The notes under the pieces were generated by a model. The model made no database searches. It was not told where the DNA came from and worked only from the letters and a program-made list of their open reading frames with translations. This document shows, one piece after another, positions 1 to 17,763 of a stretch of DNA of 64,000 nt. Position 1 is the stretch's first letter. Each line of letters begins with the position of its first letter. Position numbers and translations under genes: made by a program. This stretch comes from Seleniivibrio sp. (GTDB lineage: Bacteria; Chrysiogenota; Deferribacteres; Deferribacterales; Geovibrionaceae), in contig NZ_JAJOIL010000007.1 of assembly GCF_021209385.1 (NCBI RefSeq), positions 47,552 to 111,551 of the forward strand, given 5' to 3'.

Positions 1-3000
1 AAGGAGCTGTGTCAGTGGCTGGGCTATTATGCCGTATGCCATTGCGGTTGCTCCGGAGGTCTTTACGTCATAGTCCGATGCGGGCAGTGAAAACCCTGCC
101 ACCGAACCAAGATCACCTGCGGGAATTACAGCCAGATTGTCCTGCAATGTGTCCGAATATGAACCTGATATCTTAACCTGCGGAAAATAGTCCGCCTTTG
201 CGCCTGTAACTTTGCCATCAGCCTCGTCTATGCGAGCCTGTGCTATCTTTATGACGCGGCTGTTGTCCATTGCTGATTTAAGCGCCTGCTCCAGCGTCAT
301 GTTCACTGTTTCCGCATGCGCTGTGGAAACGATGAAGAACAATGCGAGAACTGCAACTGCCGGGCTTTTAACGCGTTTGCCCATGACGATGACATAAAGC
401 ACCGGAACAACCAGCAGTGTGAAGAACATGGAAAATATCAGCCCCACCGCCATAACGCTTGCGAGGGGACTCCAGAGTGTCGAGCCTGAAAGTATCATAG
501 GTATAACGCCTACCGCCGCCGCCATGGTCGTAAGGAAGATGGGGCGCAGTCTGCGCTGTCCCGCTTCCATTGCGGCAAGCTCAATGGGGTGTCCTTCCGC
601 TATCTTCTCTTTTATGTAATCCACCAGTATGATGGAGTTTCTGACAACTATACCGCTCAGGCTTATGACCCCCATGAAAGCGGTGAACCCGAACGGATTG
701 CCAGTTATGAACAGACCAAACATCGCACCAAGAATGGAGAGCGGTATGGACGACATGACTATGAGGGGTTCGCTGAAATTGCGGAATTGAACCAGCAAGA
801 CGATGAATATCGCCAGAAGGCTTATGCCCAAAGCACTTATCATCTGCGGCATTGTCTCTTCCTGATTGGAATTTTCACCGCCGTATGTCACTGTGTAGCC
901 TTCGGGCAGGTTCAGTTTTTCTATCTTCGGTCGTATCTCGTTCAGCATTGATGATGCGTAATGTCCCTTTTTGATGAAGGCGTTGACGGTTATCGTCCGC
1001 ACGCCGTTGCGCCGCACGAGACGGCTTGTCTGCCATTGGGGTTTGATGTCGGCAAAAGCCTTGACCGCTATGCCTTTTCCCGTTACTGACGATGCGACGT
1101 ATGAGTCCTCTATGTCGCCGAAGTTTTTGCGCTTATCTTCCGGCAGTCTGAATATGATGGGAATACTTCTGTCGCCTTCGTGGTATATGCTGATGGTCTG
1201 CCCGTCCAGCGCCGCATCCAATGTGCCTGACACTCCGTAGTTCGTAATTCCCAATCGATTAGCCAGCTCATTATTAACCTCAACGTCCACCATTCCGGAG
1301 TCGTTGAAATAGTTGGTGTGGATGTCTCTGCTGTAAGGCACCTCGCGCATGATAGCCATAACGTCGTTTGCCGCTTTTTTGAGGGTAGGGATGTCATAGC
1401 CTGATATCCGCACCTCTATGGGGGCTTCCATCTGCTGACCCTGCTGGAGTTCCTTCACAAGAACCAGTGCTTCGGGTGTCTCTTTGCCAAGCTTGGAGCT
1501 CAGTGAGCCGACCAGTTTTTTAGTCGCCTCAACAGATTCGGTGTTCACGATTATCTGCGCATAGGCAGTGTCGGGCTGCTGCGGGTTAACATTATAATAG
1601 AACCTCGGCGCGCTCTGACCTATAAAAGATGCGTAGTGCAGAACTCCTTTGGTGTCCTTTAAAGTGTTTTCTATGTGAGCAACTGTCGTGTCGGTGCTGT
1701 CGGTCTTTGTCCCCTGCGGCATCCAGATGTCTATGGTGAACTGATTGCGCTCCGCAGAGGGGAAGAATTCCTGCGGGATATGCATGTAAAGGTACAGACC
1801 GCAGACGAACGACAGGATACCGATGCCTACGGCAAAGGTTTTGTTTTTCATGAAAAACCGCATGTTATGCCCGTATGCCGTTTGCAGGAAGTCCAGCAGG
1901 CTGAATTTTTTCACTTTAGTTTCGCTATGCAGCCCTTTTTTGATAAAAAATCGGCAGATTATCGGCGTAAGCAGTGTCGCAACGATGAACGATGTGGAAA
2001 GGGCAATGGTAACTGTCAGCGGAAGCGCCCTGATGAACTCGCCCACGGAGCCTGTGAGTATCAGCATGGGGAGAAACGCGCAGATGATCGTCACGGTGGC
2101 TGTCAGGACGGGGATCAGCACCTCGCCCACGGCACGCCATCCGACCTCTTCGCCTGTTACCTTTCTGTCCAGCAGATCGACGTAGTTGTCTGCAATAACA
2201 ATCGCATCGTCAACCACAATTCCAAGCACCAGAATCAGCGATGCTATGGACACCTGATGCAGCTCTATGCCGAAAAAGTTCATCACGGCAAGGGTAGCAA
2301 GGAGCGTGACGGGAATTGCCAGAGCCGCGATCACCGCCACCCTTATCGGGAGCAGAATAATTGTGACTATTATTACCGATGCTATCGCCAGCAGAAATTC
2401 ATGGGTGAGCGATTCCATCCTGTCGGAAACCACCTGCGGCTGGTTAGCTATCATGTCGAGTTTTATGTCAGGCGGCAGTATATTGTTAATCCTTGTGAAA
2501 ACGCCAGAAAGACTCTCGCCGAGCTGTACTATGTTGTTTCCTTTCTGCATCTCAACTGAAATTATGATACTCGGCTTTCCGTCGTAACGAACCTTGAAGT
2601 CGGAATCTTCATATGTTCTTGTCACATCGGCGATATCCCGCACATATAGCGGCTGTCCCGTCTGTGAAACGTTTATCAGTGTATTCCGTATGTCGTCCAG
2701 CGATGAGTATTCGCCTGTGGTCTTGACAGGTATGGACGTTGTATCCGTGTCCAGAGTTCCCGCACCGCCGGTGACATTTCGCGCCTGTATGGTCTGAATC
2801 ATTCCTGCCGGGGTGACGGAGAACTGAGCCATCCTTTTCAGATCGCCCTTAATCTGTATCTGTTCCTCTTTTTCGCCGTAAAGCGCCAGTTTGCCCACTT
2901 CGCGCACGGTACGCATCTCGTCCTCTATCCTTTCGGCGTAGTCCTTAAGCTGTGTGTATGTGTAGTTATCACCATGCACCGCGAGAAGCATCGCCACTGT

Positions 3001-3414
3001 GTCGCCGAAGTCAGAAACCACCATGACACCGCGAACGCCTCTGGGAAGTTCTGTGTACGAAGTTTCGTTCATTTCGTGGCGCAGTTTTGCCCAGAAAAGG
3101 TCTGCATCCTTCACACTGTCTTCGAGTTCAACGTTTATTATCGCTATGCCGGGTCTGCTGGTGGAATAAGTCCTGCTTTTGTATACTTCCTGATATTTGA
3201 AGATATGCCTTTCAAGCACCTTTGTGACCTGTTTTTCCACCTCTTCTGTGGTTGCGCCCGGATAGGACGCCATTACAAGTCCTGTGCGGATAGTTATTGA
3301 AGGGTCTTCCGTCTTCGGCATGGTGAAGAAGGCATGAAGCCCGACGGCAAGCATAAGAAGCGCCATGAAAATGGCGACTGCGGGGTATTTCTGCGAAGCT
3401 TTTACAAGATTCAT
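1..3414 (-). CDS. RND multidrug efflux permease fused in frame to a TolC-like outer-membrane factor (incomplete at window edge)
   Basis: The frame opens at ATG 3414, 10 nt after the adaptor gene, and stays open to base 1 (1138 codons, no stop), so the C-terminus lies outside the window. Residues 1 to about 1015 are a full-length HAE-type RND pump: first transmembrane helix at the N-terminus, the proton-relay pair D402/D403 in GIVVDDAIVIAD, and a TM10 segment GIVVRNSIILVDY with Arg where AcrB has Lys940. After the last helix the chain runs through GKRVKS, a hydrophobic stretch and STAHA-E (residues 1011-1035), which reads as a classical signal peptide, then into TolC-family N-terminal sequence (TVNMTLEQALKSA). 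The expected role is proton-driven drug or solvent efflux. I checked codon by codon that the pump and channel share one frame across the junction. The family calls rest on motifs and should be sound; how the fused chain is processed is inference. Confidence 0.9.
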   Translation of the reverse strand, partial: MNLVKASQKYPAVAIFMALLMLAVGLHAFFTMPKTEDPSITIRTGLVMASYPGATTEEVEKQVTKVLERHIFKYQEVYKSRTYSTSRPGIAIINVELEDSVKDADLFWAKLRHEMNETSYTELPRGVRGVMVVSDFGDTVAMLLAVHGDNYTYTQLKDYAERIEDEMRTVREVGKLALYGEKEEQIQIKGDLKRMAQFSVTPAGMIQTIQARNVTGGAGTLDTDTTSIPVKTTGEYSSLDDIRNTLINVSQTGQPLYVRDIADVTRTYEDSDFKVRYDGKPSIIISVEMQKGNNIVQLGESLSGVFTRINNILPPDIKLDMIANQPQVVSDRMESLTHEFLLAIASVIIVTIILLPIRVAVIAALAIPVTLLATLAVMNFFGIELHQVSIASLILVLGIVVDDAIVIADNYVDLLDRKVTGEEVGWRAVGEVLIPVLTATVTIICAFLPMLILTGSVGEFIRALPLTVTIALSTSFIVATLLTPIICRFFIKKGLHSETKVKKFSLLDFLQTAYGHNMRFFMKNKTFAVGIGILSFVCGLYLYMHIPQEFFPSAERNQFTIDIWMPQGTKTDSTDTTVAHIENTLKDTKGVLHYASFIGQSAPRFYYNVNPQQPDTAYAQIIVNTESVEATKKLVGSLSSKLGKETPEALVLVKELQQGQQMEAPIEVRISGYDIPTLKKAANDVMAIMREVPYSRDIHTNYFNDSGMVDVEVNNELANRLGITNYGVSGTLDAALDGQTISIYHEGDRSIPIIFRLPEDKRKNFGDIEDSYVASSVTGKGIAVKAFADIKPQWQTSRLVRRNGVRTITVNAFIKKGHYASSMLNEIRPKIEKLNLPEGYTVTYGGENSNQEETMPQMISALGISLLAIFIVLLVQFRNFSEPLIVMSSIPLSILGAMFGLFITGNPFGFTAFMGVISLSGIVVRNSIILVDYIKEKIAEGHPIELAAMEAGQRRLRPIFLTTMAAAVGVIPMILSGSTLWSPLASVMAVGLIFSMFFTLLVVPVLYVIVMGKRVKSPAVAVLALFFIVSTAHAETVNMTLEQALKSAMDNSRVIKIAQARIDEADGKVTGAKADYFPQVKISGSYSDTLQDNLAVIPAGDLGSVAGFSLPASDYDVKTSGATAMAYGIIAQPLTQLL
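313..384 (-). other. internal signal-peptide-like junction between pump and channel
   Basis: Codons 1011-1034 of the pump-channel frame begin with Met-Gly-Lys-Arg, continue through about 11 hydrophobic residues and end in AHA just before Glu1035. This is the n-, h-, c-region layout of a type I signal peptide. An in-frame ATG sits at 384, but no convincing Shine-Dalgarno sequence precedes it. Either signal peptidase releases the channel from a fused precursor, or the channel is also translated from the internal ATG. Confidence 0.7.
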
Positions 3415-3424
3415 GAGAAAACCC

Positions 3425-4615
3425 CTATTTGACAGGGCTGACATCCAGCCCGTCAGAAAGTTTGTTCTGTCCGGCGGTGACTATCAATTCGTCGCCTTTC
3501 AGTCCCGATCTTATTATTGTTTGCTGTCCGTATACGGAGCCTGTTTCAACCTGTTTGGAGTATGCTTTCTTTTTATCGGGGAAATAGACGTATACGATGG
3601 TTGCGCCCTGCGGGTCTCGCAGAACTGATTCAACAGGCACCGTCAGCGCCTTTACCGGCTGTTTAGTATCTATTGATATCTCCGCAACCATTCCCAGACG
3701 GATCGCATGATCCGGGTTCGGCACGGTTATTCTTGTCATGTAGGTTCTGGTGGCGGGATCAGCAGAAACGTTTATCACCCTTACGGTTCCGGTGAATTTT
3801 CTGTCGGGCATGGCGGGGACGGAAACGTCAGCCGTCTGCCCTGTGGCGGCGAAGCGGATGTCTGTTTCAGCTATGCCCGCGTTGACCTCCACCGGGTCGA
3901 GGGGGGATATCTCGAATACGGGATAGCCTGCCTGTATGGTTTCGCCGGCTTCACAGAGGCGCTTTGTCACAAATCCGCTGACGGGCGCTTTTAACACAGT
4001 GTCGTTCAGAGCTTTTTCCGCGAGCTTAACATATGCCGCTGCCTGTTCGTATCCTGCCTTAGCCTGTGCCTTGTCTTCGGGCTGTGCGCCTGTCTGAGCC
4101 ATTTCATACTGTTGCTTTGCTGATTCGTATGCCGCTTTGAATTTTTCAAAATCGTTAGGGGCGAGGCTCTTATTGTCATATAGCATTTTCATGCGTCTGT
4201 ATTCGTCCGACGCTCTGTCATATGCTATTTTTGCCTGTTCGAGCTGTTCCGCACGGGCAGGGGATTTCGCCTTCATGTAGGCGGCGTTCGCCATGTCAGC
4301 CGACGCCTTGGCTTTGTCCAGATTGCTTCTGTAGTCTGTGTTGTCAAGCTCCGCAAGCACCTGACCCGCCTGAACGTAGTCACCCTCTCTGGGGATGGAT
4401 TTGACGACCCGTCCGCTGACGAGGAACGAAACCTTTGACGGGTTGTCCTGCGCCGTGATAACGCCGGATGCTGTTATTTTATATGTATCGTCGATGCGCT
4501 TTACCTGTGAAACCTTAACGGGTATCGGTTCGCGTTTCGGCTGTTCCTCTTTGCCTTTGCAGCCGACAAGTGAAATAATGAAAATTGCAATTAAAAAATA
4601 TCCGATATTCTTCAT
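3425..4615 (-). CDS. RND periplasmic adaptor (membrane fusion) lipoprotein
   Basis: This 396-residue protein is the HlyD/AcrA-type adaptor of the adjacent pump. It begins with a lipoprotein signal ending in the lipobox LVGC (Cys19), so it should be anchored in the inner membrane facing the periplasm. It has the usual order: barrel-sandwich half (SGRVVKSIPREGDYVQAGQ), a long helical hairpin rich in Ala, Lys and Glu (about residues 95-200), the second lipoyl half (APVSGFVTKRLCEAGETI), then the beta-barrel and membrane-proximal domains. Its ATG overlaps the tetR stop (ATGA) and its stop lies 10 nt before the pump start, so the three genes form one operon. Confidence 0.93.
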   Translation of the reverse strand: MKNIGYFLIAIFIISLVGCKGKEEQPKREPIPVKVSQVKRIDDTYKITASGVITAQDNPSKVSFLVSGRVVKSIPREGDYVQAGQVLAELDNTDYRSNLDKAKASADMANAAYMKAKSPARAEQLEQAKIAYDRASDEYRRMKMLYDNKSLAPNDFEKFKAAYESAKQQYEMAQTGAQPEDKAQAKAGYEQAAAYVKLAEKALNDTVLKAPVSGFVTKRLCEAGETIQAGYPVFEISPLDPVEVNAGIAETDIRFAATGQTADVSVPAMPDRKFTGTVRVINVSADPATRTYMTRITVPNPDHAIRLGMVAEISIDTKQPVKALTVPVESVLRDPQGATIVYVYFPDKKKAYSKQVETGSVYGQQTIIRSGLKGDELIVTAGQNKLSDGLDVSPVK

Positions 4616-5208
4616 TTGCCGCTCCCTGTGAATCCTTTAATAAGTGTGTCTATAGCTAAGTTTATCAATTTATCCGGTTGTTCCCACGGGAAATTGCGAT
4701 TTTGTATAAGGTTTGAAACTATGCCGTGCATGGAACTCCACATAACCTGAACGCCTGCTTCAGGTTCTCCGGATATCTGCGAAGCTATGTTAAGCACTGT
4801 TCCGTATGCCCTCATTCCGTTTGTTCCGCTTTCCAGAAAACGGAAAAAAGATTTTTCGCTGCGCGGGGTCATGAAGGCAATTGTGTAACTGTCCTGATTT
4901 TCCAGACCGAATTTTGCATAGGTTAGCATGCACCTTTTAAGATTCTCTTCCGGCGTATTGTTTTCGTCAACTGCGGCGGCGATCAATCCGGCAACCTGAG
5001 CGAATATTTCGTCGCATACACAGAAGATGATCTCGTCTTTACTTTTGAAATATGTGTATATCGCGGTGGGGGAGTAATCTATCTCCGCCGCTATGCGACG
5101 CATGGAAAGACTGGCTATACCGTCTTTCAGAATGGTTTTGCGGGCAACGGACAATATCTTTTCCCTTAGCGGCTTATTTACGTTCTGCTTTCTTTTTTTC
5201 GCATACAT
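4612..5208 (-). CDS. TetR-family transcriptional regulator of the efflux operon
   Basis: The 198-residue protein has the TetR N-terminal helix-turn-helix (about residues 12-60: ILSVARKTILKDG then SMRRIAAEIDYSPTAIYTYF) followed by a ligand-binding C-terminal domain typical of AcrR-like efflux repressors. GAGGT precedes the ATG at 5208. It is the first gene of the tetR-adaptor-pump operon, and a 27-bp palindrome lies directly upstream, so it most likely represses its own operon until an efflux substrate binds. The inducer cannot be told from sequence. Confidence 0.92.
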   Translation of the reverse strand: MYAKKRKQNVNKPLREKILSVARKTILKDGIASLSMRRIAAEIDYSPTAIYTYFKSKDEIIFCVCDEIFAQVAGLIAAAVDENNTPEENLKRCMLTYAKFGLENQDSYTIAFMTPRSEKSFFRFLESGTNGMRAYGTVLNIASQISGEPEAGVQVMWSSMHGIVSNLIQNRNFPWEQPDKLINLAIDTLIKGFTGSGK

Positions 5209-11625: not shown

Positions 11626-11771
11626 GCCTGAAAACAGTGTCGAAAATTATACACAGGTACATTTTCCTATGCAGAATAGTCGGCATGAGAACATACCGAA
11701 TCACCCATTCACCATCTCTTTGTTTGTCTTCTAAAGCCTTTATATTTAAATCTTTTTATGCTTCCAGTGCC

Positions 11772-11814
11772 GTTCCGGAACAACTTGGCATGTTTAATGT
11801 TATTGTTCTGGAAG
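11772..11814 (+). promoter_or_regulatory. paired dyad sites upstream of the copper efflux operon
   Basis: GTTCCGGAAC (11772-11781) is a perfect 10-bp palindrome. An imperfect copy, GTTCTGGAAG, lies 33 bp downstream at 11805-11814, three helical turns away and 24 nt before the first gene. These could be operators of a metal sensor encoded elsewhere; no regulator gene lies in the cluster. The rest of 11626-11838 shows nothing distinctive. Confidence 0.35.
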
Positions 11815-11838
11815 AATTTATTTTCAGGAGGCGATCTT

Positions 11839-12231
11839 ATGAAAAAGATCATTATGACACTGTCCCTTATCATTTGCGTTGCGGCTCTCGCTATTGCTGC
11901 CCCCCTCAGCATCACTAAGAAAACAGGCAACTACACAGTTGTTTCCGTTTTCGACAAAAACCCTGCGACTATGGGCAAAAACAAAGTGAACATCACCATC
12001 AAAGACGGCGACAAGGCTGTTGACGGTGCAAAAGTTGCCGTTTACTACTCAATGCCCGCCATGGCAGGGATGCCCGCAATGGAATACAAAGTGATTGCAA
12101 ACGGCAAAGGCGGTTCTTATTCCGCAGTGCTCGATCTGGGAATGTCAGGTCCCTGGAACGTTGATGTCAAATTTGTTCTGCCCGGTTCAAAAGCAGTTCA
12201 GCAGGCATCTTACTCCATCGACGCCAGATAA
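11839..12231 (+). CDS. small periplasmic YtkA/FixH-like protein at the head of the copper efflux operon
   Basis: Start ATG 11839 is chosen for the strong AGGAGG just upstream and the signal peptide that follows (MKKIIMTLSLIICVAALAIA). The mature protein of about 110 residues is an immunoglobulin-like beta domain (NKVNITIKDGDKAVDGAKV) with a Met-rich loop MPAMAGMPAM, as in YtkA-like domains that often precede Cu/Ag efflux genes. Four Met in ten residues, with no Cys and no His, suggest a Cu(I) site. It probably hands copper to the CusB adaptor or acts as a periplasmic accessory. A hairpin separates it from the next gene, so it may be made in excess over the pump. Confidence 0.75.
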   Translation: MKKIIMTLSLIICVAALAIAAPLSITKKTGNYTVVSVFDKNPATMGKNKVNITIKDGDKAVDGAKVAVYYSMPAMAGMPAMEYKVIANGKGGSYSAVLDLGMSGPWNVDVKFVLPGSKAVQQASYSIDAR

Positions 12232-12244
12232 TCATGCATAGAGG

Positions 12245-12269
12245 GGGGAGGTTTTCCTCCCCTTCTTTT
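12245..12269 (+). terminator. hairpin with T-rich tail inside the copper operon
   Basis: GGGGAGG, loop TTTT, CCTCCCC, then TTCTTTT, between the YtkA-like gene and the outer-membrane factor gene. It may act as a partial terminator that lowers expression of the downstream pump genes, or protect the 3' end of the first transcript. Confidence 0.6.
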
Positions 12270-12282
12270 GCGGAGGAAAAAC

Positions 12283-13539
12283 GTGAAGATACAAGCATAT
12301 TTACTTTCAATTTTCATTTTAACGGCAGGCGCGGCAAAGGCTGAAACGGTAGATATTGACGCTCTCACCGAAACCGCCCTTTCAAAAAATATAAAACTGG
12401 AATCCATGAAATACGGCGTAAGTGCGTCGGAAAATGCAGAGGTTTATTCTGGAAGCCTTACAGACCCGATGGTGAGCCTCGGCTTGGTCAACGAAGGAAC
12501 CAACTATACCGTCGGTCAGGCGGGAATGTCCCGTTATACCGTGATGGTGAGCCAGATGTTTCCGTTCTTCGGAAAGCTGGGCGCTAAACAGACAGAGGCG
12601 AAATATAAAACTCAGGCTCTGCGCGAAAGTGTCCGTGCCGAAAAACTGGAGGTCATCAATTCAGTAAGGTCACTTTATCTTGACCTTTATAACATTCAGG
12701 AATCGAAAAAACTGCTGAACACAAAAATGAGGCTGATCCAGATGACGGAAAGCTCCGCACAGGCGAAATACAGCTCCGGCATGATGGATTCTAAAGACGT
12801 TCTCATGGTTCAGCGTGAAAAATATATGGTGATGGAAGCACTTGAGATGATGAACGAGAAAGAGCGGATGCTTAAGACCTCGCTTGCACACATCACAGGA
12901 AAGGATTCGGACGATTTCGGTGAGTTTGCACTTCTGCCCGACAGAGAGGGTGAACTCGACGTTCAGGCGCTTTATAAGATGGCAGTGGAAAGCTCCGTCA
13001 CTCTTAAAAGCATGGAGAACGAGGTCAACGCAATGGCGGCGAACGTAAAGATGAAGGAGCTTGAAAAATATCCTGATTTCACAGTCACCCTCGGTTATGA
13101 ACCCAGACCCGGCTATACAATGTCCGATGTCTATTCAGCAAGCATAGGGTTCAACATTCCGCTTTATTACAGCAGCCGTCAGCTTCCCGCCATAAACGAG
13201 GCGAAGGCGCAGAAGCTGAAAGCAGATACGGTCTACAGCAACATGCGCCACGAGCTTAGAAGCATGCTTACGGAGCTTGTTGCAAATGCGGATTCATCAA
13301 AACGCATAATGGACATATATCAGTCAGGTATTTCCGCCAAAGCTGACCAGACAAGAGACGCCGCACTTGCCGCATATAAACAGGGCAGAGGCAACGCATC
13401 GGACGTTATCGCGGCGGTTAACACTTCTGTTGAATACAAAATGAAATATCTCGAAAAATATTCCGAGAGAGAAAAGAGCCTCAGCAGGCTCAACGTGCTT
13501 ACGGGAGGAAAGCTCTATGGAACGATCATCGAGGATTAA
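12283..13539 (+). CDS. TolC-family outer-membrane factor (CusC-like)
   Basis: I place the start at GTG 12283 because GGAGG lies 6 nt before it and the signal peptide begins there; a frame from 12268 adds only five residues. The 418-residue protein is the outer-membrane channel of the Cus-type system. It has a signal peptide cut near AKAET, two OEP repeats of long amphipathic helices (about residues 30-215 and 225-400, the second opening with LYKMAVESSVTLKSMENEV), and short strand regions with many Tyr and Pro (FTVTLGYEPRPGYTM). Its 3' end overlaps the adaptor gene by 23 nt. Confidence 0.88.
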   Translation: MKIQAYLLSIFILTAGAAKAETVDIDALTETALSKNIKLESMKYGVSASENAEVYSGSLTDPMVSLGLVNEGTNYTVGQAGMSRYTVMVSQMFPFFGKLGAKQTEAKYKTQALRESVRAEKLEVINSVRSLYLDLYNIQESKKLLNTKMRLIQMTESSAQAKYSSGMMDSKDVLMVQREKYMVMEALEMMNEKERMLKTSLAHITGKDSDDFGEFALLPDREGELDVQALYKMAVESSVTLKSMENEVNAMAANVKMKELEKYPDFTVTLGYEPRPGYTMSDVYSASIGFNIPLYYSSRQLPAINEAKAQKLKADTVYSNMRHELRSMLTELVANADSSKRIMDIYQSGISAKADQTRDAALAAYKQGRGNASDVIAAVNTSVEYKMKYLEKYSEREKSLSRLNVLTGGKLYGTIIED

Positions 13540-14635
13540 GATATACGCAATGACATTTCTTGCCGCTCTTGCGCTGGCTATGCCTGCGTTTGCGGATGAG
13601 TTTGATATATTTGACGAGCAGAAGCTTCTTGAGATAAAACCGGCAATCCTGCAAAAGATGGGAGTGCGCCTTACAAAAGTTAAATACGGCGACAGTACAA
13701 AATCAATAAAACTGCCCGGTATCGTGAATACCGACGAGACTTCAACCTTTACCGTTAACACAAAGTTCGGCGGCTGGATAGAGAGGCTCTATCTGGATTA
13801 TACAGGCAAAACAGTGGGCAAAGGCGCGAAAATAGCGGAAATATACAGCCCCGAAATGGTTGCCGCACAGGAGGAATACCTTTCGTTCCTGCGTCATGCC
13901 AACGGGTTTAAAACCCAGCAGGATTCATACGGCGGTGTGTTTGCCGACGATGCGAAACAGCTTGCCGCCGGCGCGCGTGCAAGGCTTAAATACTGGGATA
14001 TGAGCGAGGCGCAGATACGCGAACTTGAGCGCACGGGTAAAACGCGCCGTACTGTTTCAGTATACAGCCCGTCCAACGGCTACGTTCTGGCGAAGAACGT
14101 TTCCGCGGGTATGATGGTTCAGCCCGGAATGGCTCTTTTCACTCTGGCATCAACCGACAGAATGTGGGTTATTGCCGACGTGTATGAAGAGGATATGAAA
14201 TTCATCCGGCAGGGTGCCACAGCTAAGTTTACGCTGTCAAGCCAGCCTAATGTCGCTTTTGACATAAAGGCGGATTACATATATCCCGAAGTTTCACCAA
14301 ATACAAGAACGCTCAAGGTTCGTTTTCCCGTGGTCAACCGCGGAAACAAACTTAAACCCGCGATGTACGGTGATATAACTCTTAACGTTAAATCAGGAAA
14401 GATACTTAAGGTTGAAGAGGATGCCGTTATCGACGACGGAAAACGCAAGATAGTTTTCGTTTCAAAGGGCGAGGGCAAGTTTGAACCCCGCGAAATAGTG
14501 ACAGGCGTGAAAGCCGACGGTTTTTATGAGATACGCCGCGGGCTTAAAGCCAATGACGTTGTTGCCAGAGGCGCGAACTTCCTTCTGGATTCCGAGGCAC
14601 AGCTTAAAGGTATCAACCCCGTCAAGGTGCAGTAA
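13517..14635 (+). CDS. cusB: CusB-like periplasmic adaptor of heavy-metal RND efflux
   Basis: The 372-residue adaptor links pump and channel. The N-terminus is a signal peptide (cut near PAFAD), the barrel-sandwich part is KFGGWIERLYLDYTGKTVGKG, followed by the short helical hairpin typical of CusB (IYSPEMVAAQEEYLSFLRH) and the beta-barrel (TDRMWVIADVYEEDMKFIRQG). Unlike E. coli CusB I see no Met-rich N-terminal copper site, and the YtkA-like protein may fill that role. The start is inside the preceding gene and the stop overlaps the cusA start by 1 nt. Confidence 0.9.
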   Translation: MERSSRIKIYAMTFLAALALAMPAFADEFDIFDEQKLLEIKPAILQKMGVRLTKVKYGDSTKSIKLPGIVNTDETSTFTVNTKFGGWIERLYLDYTGKTVGKGAKIAEIYSPEMVAAQEEYLSFLRHANGFKTQQDSYGGVFADDAKQLAAGARARLKYWDMSEAQIRELERTGKTRRTVSVYSPSNGYVLAKNVSAGMMVQPGMALFTLASTDRMWVIADVYEEDMKFIRQGATAKFTLSSQPNVAFDIKADYIYPEVSPNTRTLKVRFPVVNRGNKLKPAMYGDITLNVKSGKILKVEEDAVIDDGKRKIVFVSKGEGKFEPREIVTGVKADGFYEIRRGLKANDVVARGANFLLDSEAQLKGINPVKVQ

Positions 14636-17600
14636 TGATAGAGAAACTTATCGGTTTTTCCGCCAGAAACAAGTTTCTGGTGATACTGTTTATTCTGGCG
14701 GCAGTGGGCGCAGGGTTGTGGTCTGCTAAAAAGACCCCTCTGGATGCAATACCCGACCTGAGCGACGTTCAGGTCATAGTTTTCACCGAATGGTCAGGGC
14801 GCTCCCCCGACCTTGTGGAAGACCAGATAACCTACCCCATCGTCAGCAGTCTGCTGGCGGCTCCGAAGGTTAAGGTGGTAAGGGGTTATTCGTTCTTCGG
14901 ATTCTCCTACGTTTACGCCATTTTCGACGACGGAACGGATATCTACTGGGCGCGCAGCCGTGTTCTTGAGAACATAAGCAAGATAAGCGGAAAACTGCCG
15001 CCGAACGTCAGCCCCGCTCTGGGACCCGATGCGACTGGCGTAGGCTGGGTGTATCAGTATGCGCTGGTGGACAAATCCGGCAAACATAACCTCAGTGAAC
15101 TGCGGTCATATCAGGACTGGTATCTGAAGTACGCTCTTGAAGAGGTAAAAGGTGTTGCGGAAGTAGCATCTGTGGGCGGACACGTCAAAGAATACCAGAT
15201 AAACATAGATCCCGACAAACTCCGCGGATACGGCATAAGCCTGAACCAGCTTGTTAAAGCGGTGCGCGACAGCAACCGCGACACGGGCGGGCGCTCCGTT
15301 GAGCTTTCCGGCAGAGACTTCATGGTCAAGGGTATCGGATATATCAAAAATCTGGACGATATCCGCAACATAGTCATCAAAAACGACGGAATGGGCGTTC
15401 CCGTGCTTGTCAGTGACGTTGCATCTGTTGAAACAGGACCCACCATGCGAAGAGGCATAGCCGACTTTAACGGCGACGGCGAAGCTGTCGGCGGCGTTGT
15501 GGTCATGCGCTACGGCGAAAACGCACTCAACGTAATCAACAATGTTAAAGCCAAAATAGAAACCCTGAAATCGTCACTTCCCGAAGGTGTTGAGCTGGTT
15601 CCCGTATACGACCGCTCAACTCTCATCGTGGATTCCATAAAGACACTGCGCGACAAACTTATCGAGGAGATAATCATTGTCAGTCTCGTGTGCATAGTGT
15701 TCCTGTTCCATTTCCGTTCGGCGCTGGTGGCGATACTCACGCTTCCCGTGGCAATTGTGATGTCGTTCATCATGTTCCGCTGGCTTGGCATCACATCAAA
15801 CATCATGTCGCTTGGCGGTATAGCTATTGCAATCGGTGCAATGGTGGATGCGGCGATAGTTATGGTTGAGAATGCTCACAAACAGCTTGAGCATAATCCC
15901 GATGCGAACAGGGTAGAGGTGATTATCGCCGCCGCGCAGAAGGTGGGCAAGCCGCTCTTCTTCTCGCTTCTGATAATCACCGTGTCTTTCCTTCCCGTTT
16001 TCGCTCTTGAAGCGCAGGAAGGCAGGCTGTTCAAGCCACTTGCATATACAAAGACCTTTTCAATGCTGTTTGCGTCCATCCTTTCGGTGACGCTGGTTCC
16101 GGCACTTATGGTCATATTCATAAAAGGAAAGATACGCCACGAGCAGGATAACCCTATAACCAAGGCGCTGGTGTTTCTGTATAACCCGTTCGTGCAGTTC
16201 GCACTGAAATACAGATATTTTGTAATGGCGCTGGCGGTGGTATCTCTTGCCGCAACCTATCCCATAGTTAAAAAACTCGGCTCGGAGTTTATGCCCGTAC
16301 TGAACGAAGGCGCCATTTTCTATATGCCGACCACTCTGCCGGGGATATCCGCATCCGAGGCGGCAAAGAGCTTACAGGCGCAGAACGAGCTGATAAAGAG
16401 CGTTCCTGAAGTTGACACCGTTTTCGGAAAGGCGGGCAACGCAACCACAGCCACAGACCCTGCCGGTCTCTCAATGGCAGAGACGGTCATTACCCTTAAA
16501 CCCCACGACCAGTGGCGCAAAGGCATGACGTTTGAAAAGCTCATAGACGAGATGAACGAAAAGGTGAAGGTTGCAGGCTGGGTGAACTCGTGGACCATGC
16601 CCATCAAAGCCCGTATAGACATGCTTTCAACAGGCATCAAAACGCCTGTGGGGATCAAAGTGTTCGGCCCCGACCCTGCGAAACTTCAGGAGATTGGACA
16701 GGAGCTTGAAACGTCGCTCATGAGAGTTGACGGCACAAGAAGTGTCTATTCCGAGCGTACCGACGGCGGATACTATCTTTATATCGAGCCCGACATGTTC
16801 AAAATGTCCAGATACGGCATAACCGTTGAGGATGTCAACATGGTCATAGAATCTGCCATAGGCGGTATGCCTGTCACAAAAACAGTTGAAGGCAGGGAAC
16901 GTTACCCCGTTGCAGTACGCTATAAAAAAGCGTTCAGAAACGATGTCGAGTCCATAAAGAACGTGCTTGTCCCCGTTGGCGGCATGAACGGGCAGGCAAA
17001 CTATATTCCCCTCGGCGATATAGCGAACGTCTATCTGAAGTCAGGTCCCGACATGCTGAAAGAGGAGAACGGAATGTTGGTCTCCTATGTATATGTCGAC
17101 CTGCAGCAGGGACTTGACGTAGGCAGTTATGTTAAGAAAGCTATTGCAGAGGTTGACAACACTATAAAGCTTCCGCAGGGGTATACTCTCAAATGGAGCG
17201 GTGAATATGAGTCAATGCAGAGGGTTAAAGAGAAGCTGAAACTTGCCGTTCCGCTCACGCTGGGACTGATATTCATGCTTCTGTATCTCAACTTCCGCTC
17301 GGTGACAAAAACTGCGATAGTCATGCTTTCAGTACCTTTTGCACTGGTTGGCGGATTCCTCTACCTGTATTTTCTGGGCTACAACATGTCCGTTGCGGTC
17401 TGGGTGGGGCTTATAGCCCTTGCGGGGGTGTCAGCGGAGACGGGGGTTGTTATGATAGTCTATCTGGACGAGGCGTTTGACGAATGGAAGGCGCGGGGAC
17501 AGATGAACAATGACGAAGACCTCAAGGCTGCCGTTGTTTACGGAGCAGTGCAGAGAGTGCGTCCGAAGATAATGACCGTGGCGACGCTTATCATCGGTCT

Positions 17601-17763
17601 GGTGCCTATCATGTGGGCAACGGGAAGCGGTGCGGACGTTATGAAGCGTATCGCGGCACCAATGATCGGCGGTATGGTCACGTCAACCATTCTGACCCTT
17701 ATAATCATACCAGCTCTATATTTCTCATGGAAAAAGTGGGAAATTAAAAAGCAAACAGTATAA
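14635..17763 (+). CDS. cusA: CusA-type Cu(I)/Ag(I) RND efflux pump
   Basis: At 1042 residues this is a complete heavy-metal RND pump. The family motif GAMVDAAIVMVENAH (TM4 region, with the proton-relay Asp) is present. The three methionines that form the substrate site in E. coli CusA are all conserved: M564 (FYMPTTLPG), M614 (LSMAETV) and M663 (RIDMLSTGIK), with the same 50- and 49-residue spacing. This supports monovalent copper/silver rather than Co/Zn/Cd specificity. The pump should export metal from periplasm and cytoplasm through the adaptor and channel encoded upstream. A strong terminator follows. Confidence 0.94.
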   Translation: MIEKLIGFSARNKFLVILFILAAVGAGLWSAKKTPLDAIPDLSDVQVIVFTEWSGRSPDLVEDQITYPIVSSLLAAPKVKVVRGYSFFGFSYVYAIFDDGTDIYWARSRVLENISKISGKLPPNVSPALGPDATGVGWVYQYALVDKSGKHNLSELRSYQDWYLKYALEEVKGVAEVASVGGHVKEYQINIDPDKLRGYGISLNQLVKAVRDSNRDTGGRSVELSGRDFMVKGIGYIKNLDDIRNIVIKNDGMGVPVLVSDVASVETGPTMRRGIADFNGDGEAVGGVVVMRYGENALNVINNVKAKIETLKSSLPEGVELVPVYDRSTLIVDSIKTLRDKLIEEIIIVSLVCIVFLFHFRSALVAILTLPVAIVMSFIMFRWLGITSNIMSLGGIAIAIGAMVDAAIVMVENAHKQLEHNPDANRVEVIIAAAQKVGKPLFFSLLIITVSFLPVFALEAQEGRLFKPLAYTKTFSMLFASILSVTLVPALMVIFIKGKIRHEQDNPITKALVFLYNPFVQFALKYRYFVMALAVVSLAATYPIVKKLGSEFMPVLNEGAIFYMPTTLPGISASEAAKSLQAQNELIKSVPEVDTVFGKAGNATTATDPAGLSMAETVITLKPHDQWRKGMTFEKLIDEMNEKVKVAGWVNSWTMPIKARIDMLSTGIKTPVGIKVFGPDPAKLQEIGQELETSLMRVDGTRSVYSERTDGGYYLYIEPDMFKMSRYGITVEDVNMVIESAIGGMPVTKTVEGRERYPVAVRYKKAFRNDVESIKNVLVPVGGMNGQANYIPLGDIANVYLKSGPDMLKEENGMLVSYVYVDLQQGLDVGSYVKKAIAEVDNTIKLPQGYTLKWSGEYESMQRVKEKLKLAVPLTLGLIFMLLYLNFRSVTKTAIVMLSVPFALVGGFLYLYFLGYNMSVAVWVGLIALAGVSAETGVVMIVYLDEAFDEWKARGQMNNDEDLKAAVVYGAVQRVRPKIMTVATLIIGLVPIMWATGSGADVMKRIAAPMIGGMVTSTILTLIIIPALYFSWKKWEIKKQTV

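What the first reader, a model, noticed from the sequence alone, without database searches (positions are those of the whole stretch)
1..480. RND efflux pump and TolC-like outer-membrane channel in one reading frame, joined by an internal signal peptide
The frame opening at 3414 covers a full-length pump, then continues with no stop through a positively charged stretch, a hydrophobic run and an AHA cleavage site into TolC-family sequence. I read the codons one by one from 429 to 298 and checked the frame at 639, 2208 and 2211: no frameshift. The pump C-terminus is cytoplasmic and the channel belongs in the outer membrane, so the junction must work as a thirteenth membrane segment cut by signal peptidase, or the channel must be re-initiated at the ATG at 384. 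This would fix pump and channel synthesis at a 1:1 ratio or link their assembly. To my knowledge fused RND-channel proteins are annotated among Bacteroidetes heavy-metal pumps; a TetR-linked multidrug-type version looks unusual.
Basis: partly seen in the sequence, partly recalled or inferred. Interest (0 to 1): 0.85.

Follow-up and report, generated by a model that had tools for sequence, protein, structure and literature searches.

The report
Pump and channel made as one
One gene encodes both the inner-membrane pump and the outer-membrane channel of a likely multidrug exporter, joined by a conserved signal-peptide-like stretch that would probably let the cell cut the two apart after making them in equal numbers; relatives with the same joined gene occur in five bacterial phyla.

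Summary
The frame from ATG 3414 runs through a full RND pump, a signal-peptide-like junction and a complete TolC-type channel; its stop lies 948 bases beyond the window edge (1453 aa). It is no sequencing accident: 60 distinct loci carry the same fusion in one frame, 52 complete, across five phyla.

The junction diverges, yet over 126 aligned rows position -1 is Ala in 126 and -3 is Ala or Val in 123. The predicted cut lies four residues before the residue that superposes on residue 1 of mature TolC. Internal re-initiation is not supported: 2 of 129 junction start codons have a Shine-Dalgarno-like site (4.5 expected by shuffling) against 36 of 54 pump starts.

Best reading: a polyprotein predicted to be cut by signal peptidase I, giving pump and channel (both trimers) 1:1, while the hexameric adaptor stays a separate gene in 55 of 55 complete rows (52 distinct). 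Public annotation already names such fusions; my six paper searches on the topic showed no study of one. New variant of a known kind; cleavage is untested.

The parts
4612..5208 (-). TetR-type regulator gene, first of the likely operon
   Evidence: TetR_N 44.7 bits; overlaps the adaptor start by 4 bases
3425..4615 (-). Periplasmic adaptor (membrane fusion protein) gene with lipoprotein-like N-terminus
   Evidence: HlyD_D23 102 bits, TIGR01730 RND_mfp 215 bits over its cut-off 94.9; LVGC near the N-terminus read from the sequence
385..3414 (-). Pump half, residues 1-1010: RND permease, ends after the twelfth membrane segment
   Evidence: ACR_tran 9-1010; nearest solved structures MexK 499 bits and 6vej 465.5 bits
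313..384 (-). Junction, residues 1011-1034: MGKRVKSPAVAVLALFFIVSTAHA, signal-peptide-like; predicted cut after residue 1034 (313|312)
   Evidence: -1 Ala in 126 of 126 and -3 Ala/Val in 123 of 126 rows; 2 or more K/R in the first 10 residues in 126 of 126 rows, median peak hydropathy 2.94
1..312 (-). Start of the channel half, residues 1035-1138; the rest (to residue 1453 and the stop) lies outside the window, G000:C12:46604-47551

Best explanation
The gene encodes an RND pump and a TolC-type channel in one open frame, and the product is likely a polyprotein that signal peptidase I would cut after AHA-1034 into an inner-membrane pump and an outer-membrane channel. Steps: (1) shown: one frame, full pump, junction, full channel, conserved in relatives. 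(2) Inferred from the family: the pump enters the membrane with its C-terminus inside, so the basic stretch stays in the cytoplasm and the next hydrophobic run crosses outward, as a normal signal peptide does. (3) Inferred: signal peptidase I cuts after AHA; the short stub stays on the pump and the channel goes to the outer membrane by the usual BAM route. (4) Inferred: pump and channel, both trimers, are made 1:1, and join the separately encoded adaptor, needed as a hexamer, into an ordinary tripartite exporter. (5) Inferred from the nearest relatives MexK and TriC: the substrates are drug-like or hydrophobic compounds, under TetR control.
For: Fusion in 60 distinct loci besides the window, 52 complete. 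In the phylum 6 of 50 genomes carry this channel and in 6 of 6 it lies in the fused frame. Position -1 Ala 126 of 126, -3 Ala 112 and Val 11 of 126, while junction identity to the query is 0-47% in the 13 rows compared, pump 59-89%, channel 36-80%; Ala makes up 23% of the junction otherwise. 2 or more K/R in the first 10 junction residues in 126 of 126. Control: tails of 14 unfused pumps, 13 without a hydrophobic run (peak 0.39 or less); the one exception, L032, is a motif misplacement that took in TM12 itself. Structure: model residue 50 (protein 1039) lies on residue 1 of TolC in 5ng5, 9tg4 and 1ek9, four residues after the predicted mature start. Only 4-8 residues part the cut from conserved Leu1041 in 126 of 126 rows, 14-29 A if fully extended, whereas the channel N-terminus belongs to the equatorial belt half-way up a 100 A barrel (PMC8277102, passages), so an uncut chain could hardly reach. 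Separate relatives of the channel carry the same kind of stretch as an ordinary N-terminal signal peptide, clear by eye in L090, L093, L098, L099, L100. Copy numbers trimer, hexamer, trimer: PMC10191380, passages; adaptor a separate frame upstream in 55 of 55 complete rows.
Against: No protein-level data: cleavage, localisation, stoichiometry and transport are untested. The junction is the least confident part of the model (pLDDT under 50 at 23-30 and 37-44). In the more divergent 53-row set -1 is Ala in 49 and -3 is Ala/Val in 45 as aligned, with Leu in 5 (Geothrix/Holophagaceae), Met in 2, Lys in 1; the four rows without Ala at -1 read ARG, AHA, VWG and VNA when ungapped. Rows are related, so 126 is not 126 independent tests. 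The reading of 1:1 as an advantage is weakened by Hymenobacter, where close relatives are two adjacent genes, and by the own genome, whose other 13 OEP frames are separate.
Confidence: 0.85

Rival explanations
1. The channel is translated separately from an internal start (ATG 384 or nearby), so the long frame is mostly two overlapping products.
For: ATG 384 stands exactly where a signal peptide would begin, and Met there is kept in the window's own family. 60 of 63 fused rows have some ATG/GTG/TTG in the stretch.
Against: Met at that position in 11 of 126 rows; Shine-Dalgarno-like site before 2 of 129 junction start codons, 4.5 expected by shuffling, against 36 of 54 pump starts as control. 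A basic n-region and in-frame length changes are kept without a start.
Confidence: 0.06
2. The chain stays uncut and works as a tethered pump-channel with a thirteenth membrane helix.
For: The junction is hydrophobic enough to stay as a membrane helix (median peak 2.94); the fusion is kept over five phyla.
Against: The signal peptidase motif is kept while the rest diverges; 4-8 residues after it cannot span from the inner membrane to the equatorial belt of the channel; a split version exists in Hymenobacter.
Confidence: 0.06
3. An assembly or sequencing error removed a stop between two ordinary genes.
For: None found beyond the draft state of the assembly (42 contigs).
Against: Same frame in 60 distinct further loci from independent assemblies, among them a complete chromosome, CP114561 (L071).
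Confidence: 0.01

Closest known systems
CusA/CzcA-type heavy-metal pump fused to a channel, Bacteroidota (L123, L124, L125)
   Same: Order pump-junction-OEP in one frame of 1476-1656 aa, with a signal-peptide-like junction read by eye in L123 and L125
   Different: Those pumps pass TIGR00914 (1181-1210 bits, cut-off 701); this one scores 378 and does not. In this window the cusCBA-like operon is three separate genes
MexJK and TriABC of Pseudomonas aeruginosa (nearest pumps with solved structures)
   Same: RND pump half matches over its whole length, 499 and 465.5 bits; paired with OprM/OpmH channels according to a table in PMC8277102 (passage)
   Different: Their channel is a separate gene (recalled); 6vej is TriC by recall, its listing says only 'probable RND efflux transporter'
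AcrAB-TolC
   Different: Pump and channel are separate genes there; AcrB Lys940 is Arg925 here in 126 of 126 rows (AcrB number recalled)
Cytochrome b-c1 polyprotein (fbcH) of Bradyrhizobium japonicum (recalled, no paper seen)
   Same: A polytopic inner-membrane protein followed by an internal signal peptide cut by signal peptidase
   Different: Both products stay at the inner membrane; here the second product would go to the outer membrane

Membership tests
RND permease, HAE-1 (multidrug) type | Full ACR_tran domain | tested here: met
   642 bits, profile 7-1020 of 1021
RND permease, HAE-1 (multidrug) type | Acidic pair in TM4 and basic residue in TM10 (recalled from AcrB) | tested here: met
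   Asp402 in 120 of 120 ungapped rows; Asp403 in 104 of 120, Asn in 16; TM10 position is Arg in 126 of 126, not Lys
RND permease, HAE-1 (multidrug) type | Curated NCBIfam multidrug subfamily cut-off | tested here: not met
   RND_permease_2 521 of 1250 bits needed; TIGR00915 405 of 940: related, outside the curated subfamilies
CusA/CzcA heavy-metal RND family (TIGR00914) | Score over the curated cut-off | tested here: not met
   378 of 701 bits
TolC/OMF outer-membrane channel | Two OEP repeats over the cut-off | tested here: met
   158 bits, cut-off 22, 2 stretches
TolC/OMF outer-membrane channel | TolC fold | tested here: met
TolC/OMF outer-membrane channel | Trimer in the outer membrane | not testable with these tools
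   Needs fractionation or structure
Signal peptidase I substrate | Basic n-region, hydrophobic core, small residues at -3 and -1 | tested here: met
   no SignalP run was possible
Signal peptidase I substrate | Actual cleavage | not testable with these tools
   Needs N-terminal proteomics or blots
Separately initiated channel gene | Conserved start codon with ribosome-binding site at the junction | tested here: not met
   Met in 11 of 126; SD-like site in 2 of 129 start codons

The most novel reading that the evidence does not exclude
A two-membrane polyprotein: by being born as the tail of its own pump, the channel is threaded through the same translocon co-translationally, cut out by signal peptidase I, and released beside its pump in a fixed 3:3 ratio, so that synthesis, delivery and pairing of the two trimers are coupled while the 6-copy adaptor is made apart. 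A TolC-type channel would thus skip the usual post-translational export route.
Probability: 0.35. Interest if true: 0.72.

Novelty: new variant of a known kind. Interest (0 to 1): 0.52.

Why it matters
How cells match pump, adaptor and channel numbers, and how a channel finds its pump, is an open question in tripartite efflux. Here evolution has locked together the two parts needed in equal number and kept the third apart, over five phyla. If cut as predicted, it is a bacterial polyprotein whose halves end in different membranes, and its junction gives a ready test of co-translational channel delivery.

Tried and rejected
Internal re-initiation, a tether without cleavage and an assembly artefact were considered and set low. 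Lipoprotein-type junctions would have been direct proof of cutting; none of the 126 rows has Cys at +1.

A single origin of the fusion was tested and not settled. The pump tree of 74 rows needs two changes, with the Bacteroidota group (Flammeovirga fused, two Hymenobacter separate) next to the other 54 fused rows. A careful tree of 29 of these 74 rows rejects the fused rows as one clade (AU p 0.0045) and puts fused L114 outermost, which fits one fusion and a later split in Hymenobacter; both trees warn of long branches (L108, L113, L105). For the trees and for I dropped L043, L044 and L078, which contain L025, L024 and L028 letter for letter.

The protein search scored only 7995 candidates, listed 120 of 198 hits and admits only proteins 0.55-1.75 times the query's length, so it favours fused proteins and says nothing of the share of separate ones; the channel-only searches do that.

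Paper searches: six on the fusion, three on the internal-signal-peptide precedent, one on the organism (54). None listed a study of an RND-OMF fusion; of the papers listed I saw passages of PMC8277102 (of which the first 300,000 characters are held), PMC10191380 and PMC6256036 only, and the last did not bear on the question. The cytochrome b-c1 precedent is recalled.

Full report
What is there. The minus-strand frame that leaves the window at base 1 is real and complete in the contig. The window is G000:C12:47552-111551. From ATG 3414 the frame gives 1453 aa and stops 948 bases outside the window. Pfam finds ACR_tran 9-1010 and two OEP stretches from 1041. Upstream lie an adaptor gene (3425-4615) and a TetR-type gene (4612-5208), all on one strand and touching. 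The genome is of the same genus as G002, whose locus L025 is contained letter for letter in a record titled Seleniivibrio woodruffii (L043); that species is in Deferribacterota, family Geovibrionaceae.

How widespread. In 59 genomes, the window's own included, a full-length match in one frame without stops was listed in six: the own one, two of the same genus (86%) and three of the same family (55%). A search of 50 genomes of the phylum with the channel alone found it in six, each time inside a frame of 1454-1475 aa. In named genomes, a scan with the channel alone kept the best 80 matches, 76 loci: 58 fused, 15 with a separate channel, 3 cut by a contig end. With five loci this makes 63 fused rows, 55 with complete frames; three rows are duplicates, leaving 60 distinct loci, 52 complete. 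Titles and tree labels place them in Deferribacterota, Thermodesulfobacteriota (mostly Geobacteraceae), Nitrospirota, Acidobacteriota and Bacteroidota; a 'Bacillota' MAG (L083) and titles labelled Myxococcota are not counted. A protein search with the channel half, limited to proteins of similar whole length, gave 198 hits; the 120 listed carry both PF00873 and PF02321, 104 of them 1400 aa or longer, and several are named 'multidrug efflux pump subunit AcrB/outer membrane protein TolC' by their source.

The junction. Over 126 rows (120 listed proteins, five loci, the query) -1 is Ala in 126; -3 is Ala in 112, Val in 11, and Gln, Leu, Ser once each. In the 13 rows compared with the query, the junction is 0-47% identical, the pump 59-89% and the channel 36-80%. 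The first ten residues hold two or more K/R in 126 of 126; 93 have no acidic residue, 29 one, 4 two; peak hydropathy over 12 residues has median 2.94, minimum 1.75. Junction length varies from 23 to 42 residues without loss of frame. In a second, more divergent set of 53 rows -1 is Ala in 49; the other four read ARG, AHA, VWG and VNA when ungapped; -3 is Ala/Val in 45, Leu in 5, Met in 2, Lys in 1. As a negative control the tails of 14 unfused pumps were read: 13 have no hydrophobic run, and L032 is a misplacement on TM12.

Separate start or not. Met stands at the ATG-384 position in 11 of 126 rows. In 60 distinct fused loci the stretch holds 129 ATG/GTG/TTG codons; 2 have an AGGA/GGAG/GAGG site 4-14 bases upstream, 4.5 expected by shuffling; the same test on pump starts finds it in 36 of 54 loci.

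Pump type. Nearest solved pumps are MexK (499 bits) and 6vej (465.5 bits; TriC by recall). The curated cut-offs for heavy-metal (378 of 701) and multidrug (521 of 1250) RND subfamilies are both missed. Asp402 is kept in 120 of 120 ungapped rows, Asp403 in 104 of 120 (Asn in 16), and the TM10 basic residue is Arg in 126 of 126. Substrates are inferred only.

Origin. In Hymenobacter the pump (48-49% identity) and channel (32-33%) are adjacent genes, the channel ATG following the pump stop by four bases (L099) and two (L100), with their own signal-peptide-like N-termini. Flammeovirga L108 is fused. The trees leave open whether there was one fusion with a later split or more than one fusion. Bacteroidota also hold a separate family of fused CusA/CzcA-type pumps (L123, L124, L125), so joining pump and channel has arisen in at least two pump types, whereas the heavy-metal operon in this very window is not fused.

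Mechanism. The simplest reading is a polyprotein cut by signal peptidase I. RND pump and channel are trimers and the adaptor a hexamer (PMC10191380, passages). The two parts needed in equal number are fused; the adaptor is a separate frame upstream in 55 of 55 complete rows, 52 of them distinct. Whether equal synthesis is the advantage is not shown: the own genome has 13 other OEP frames that are not fused to a pump of this kind, and six of 12 genomes of the family lack the gene.

Noticed in passing
window 11758-17763: Ordinary cusCBA-like heavy-metal operon with separate genes: YtkA-like protein, OEP channel, CusB-like adaptor, CusA/CzcA pump (TIGR00914 1166 bits). The reverse of the Bacteroidota pattern, where the metal pump is the fused one.
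   Followed up: partly
L123:124-4557, L124:822-5789 (minus), L125:190-4617: Fused CusA/CzcA-type pump-channel frames of 1476-1656 aa in Flammeovirga and Hymenobacter, with signal-peptide-like junctions read in L123 and L125.
   Followed up: partly
G014:C104:392-4798, G052:C26:29781-33629, G026:C71:7280-10408, G017:C1:81451-84507: More distant pump matches in long frames (1487-1532 aa), two of them with stops inside; possibly other pump-channel or extended pumps.
   Followed up: no
G000:C41:127669-128847 (L013): An OEP channel in a frame of 680 aa, about 200 aa longer than the others of this genome.
   Followed up: no
G000:C12 left of the window, L002:34-5748 (plus strand): By their sequences, likely siderophore-uptake genes beyond the channel: permease, ATPase, binding protein, TonB-dependent receptor and an esterase-like gene, then an AraC-type regulator to 6603 ending next to the channel's stop (named by eye).
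   Followed up: no
L102: Nitrospiraceae MAG whose fused frame is broken inside the channel by a frame change.
   Followed up: no
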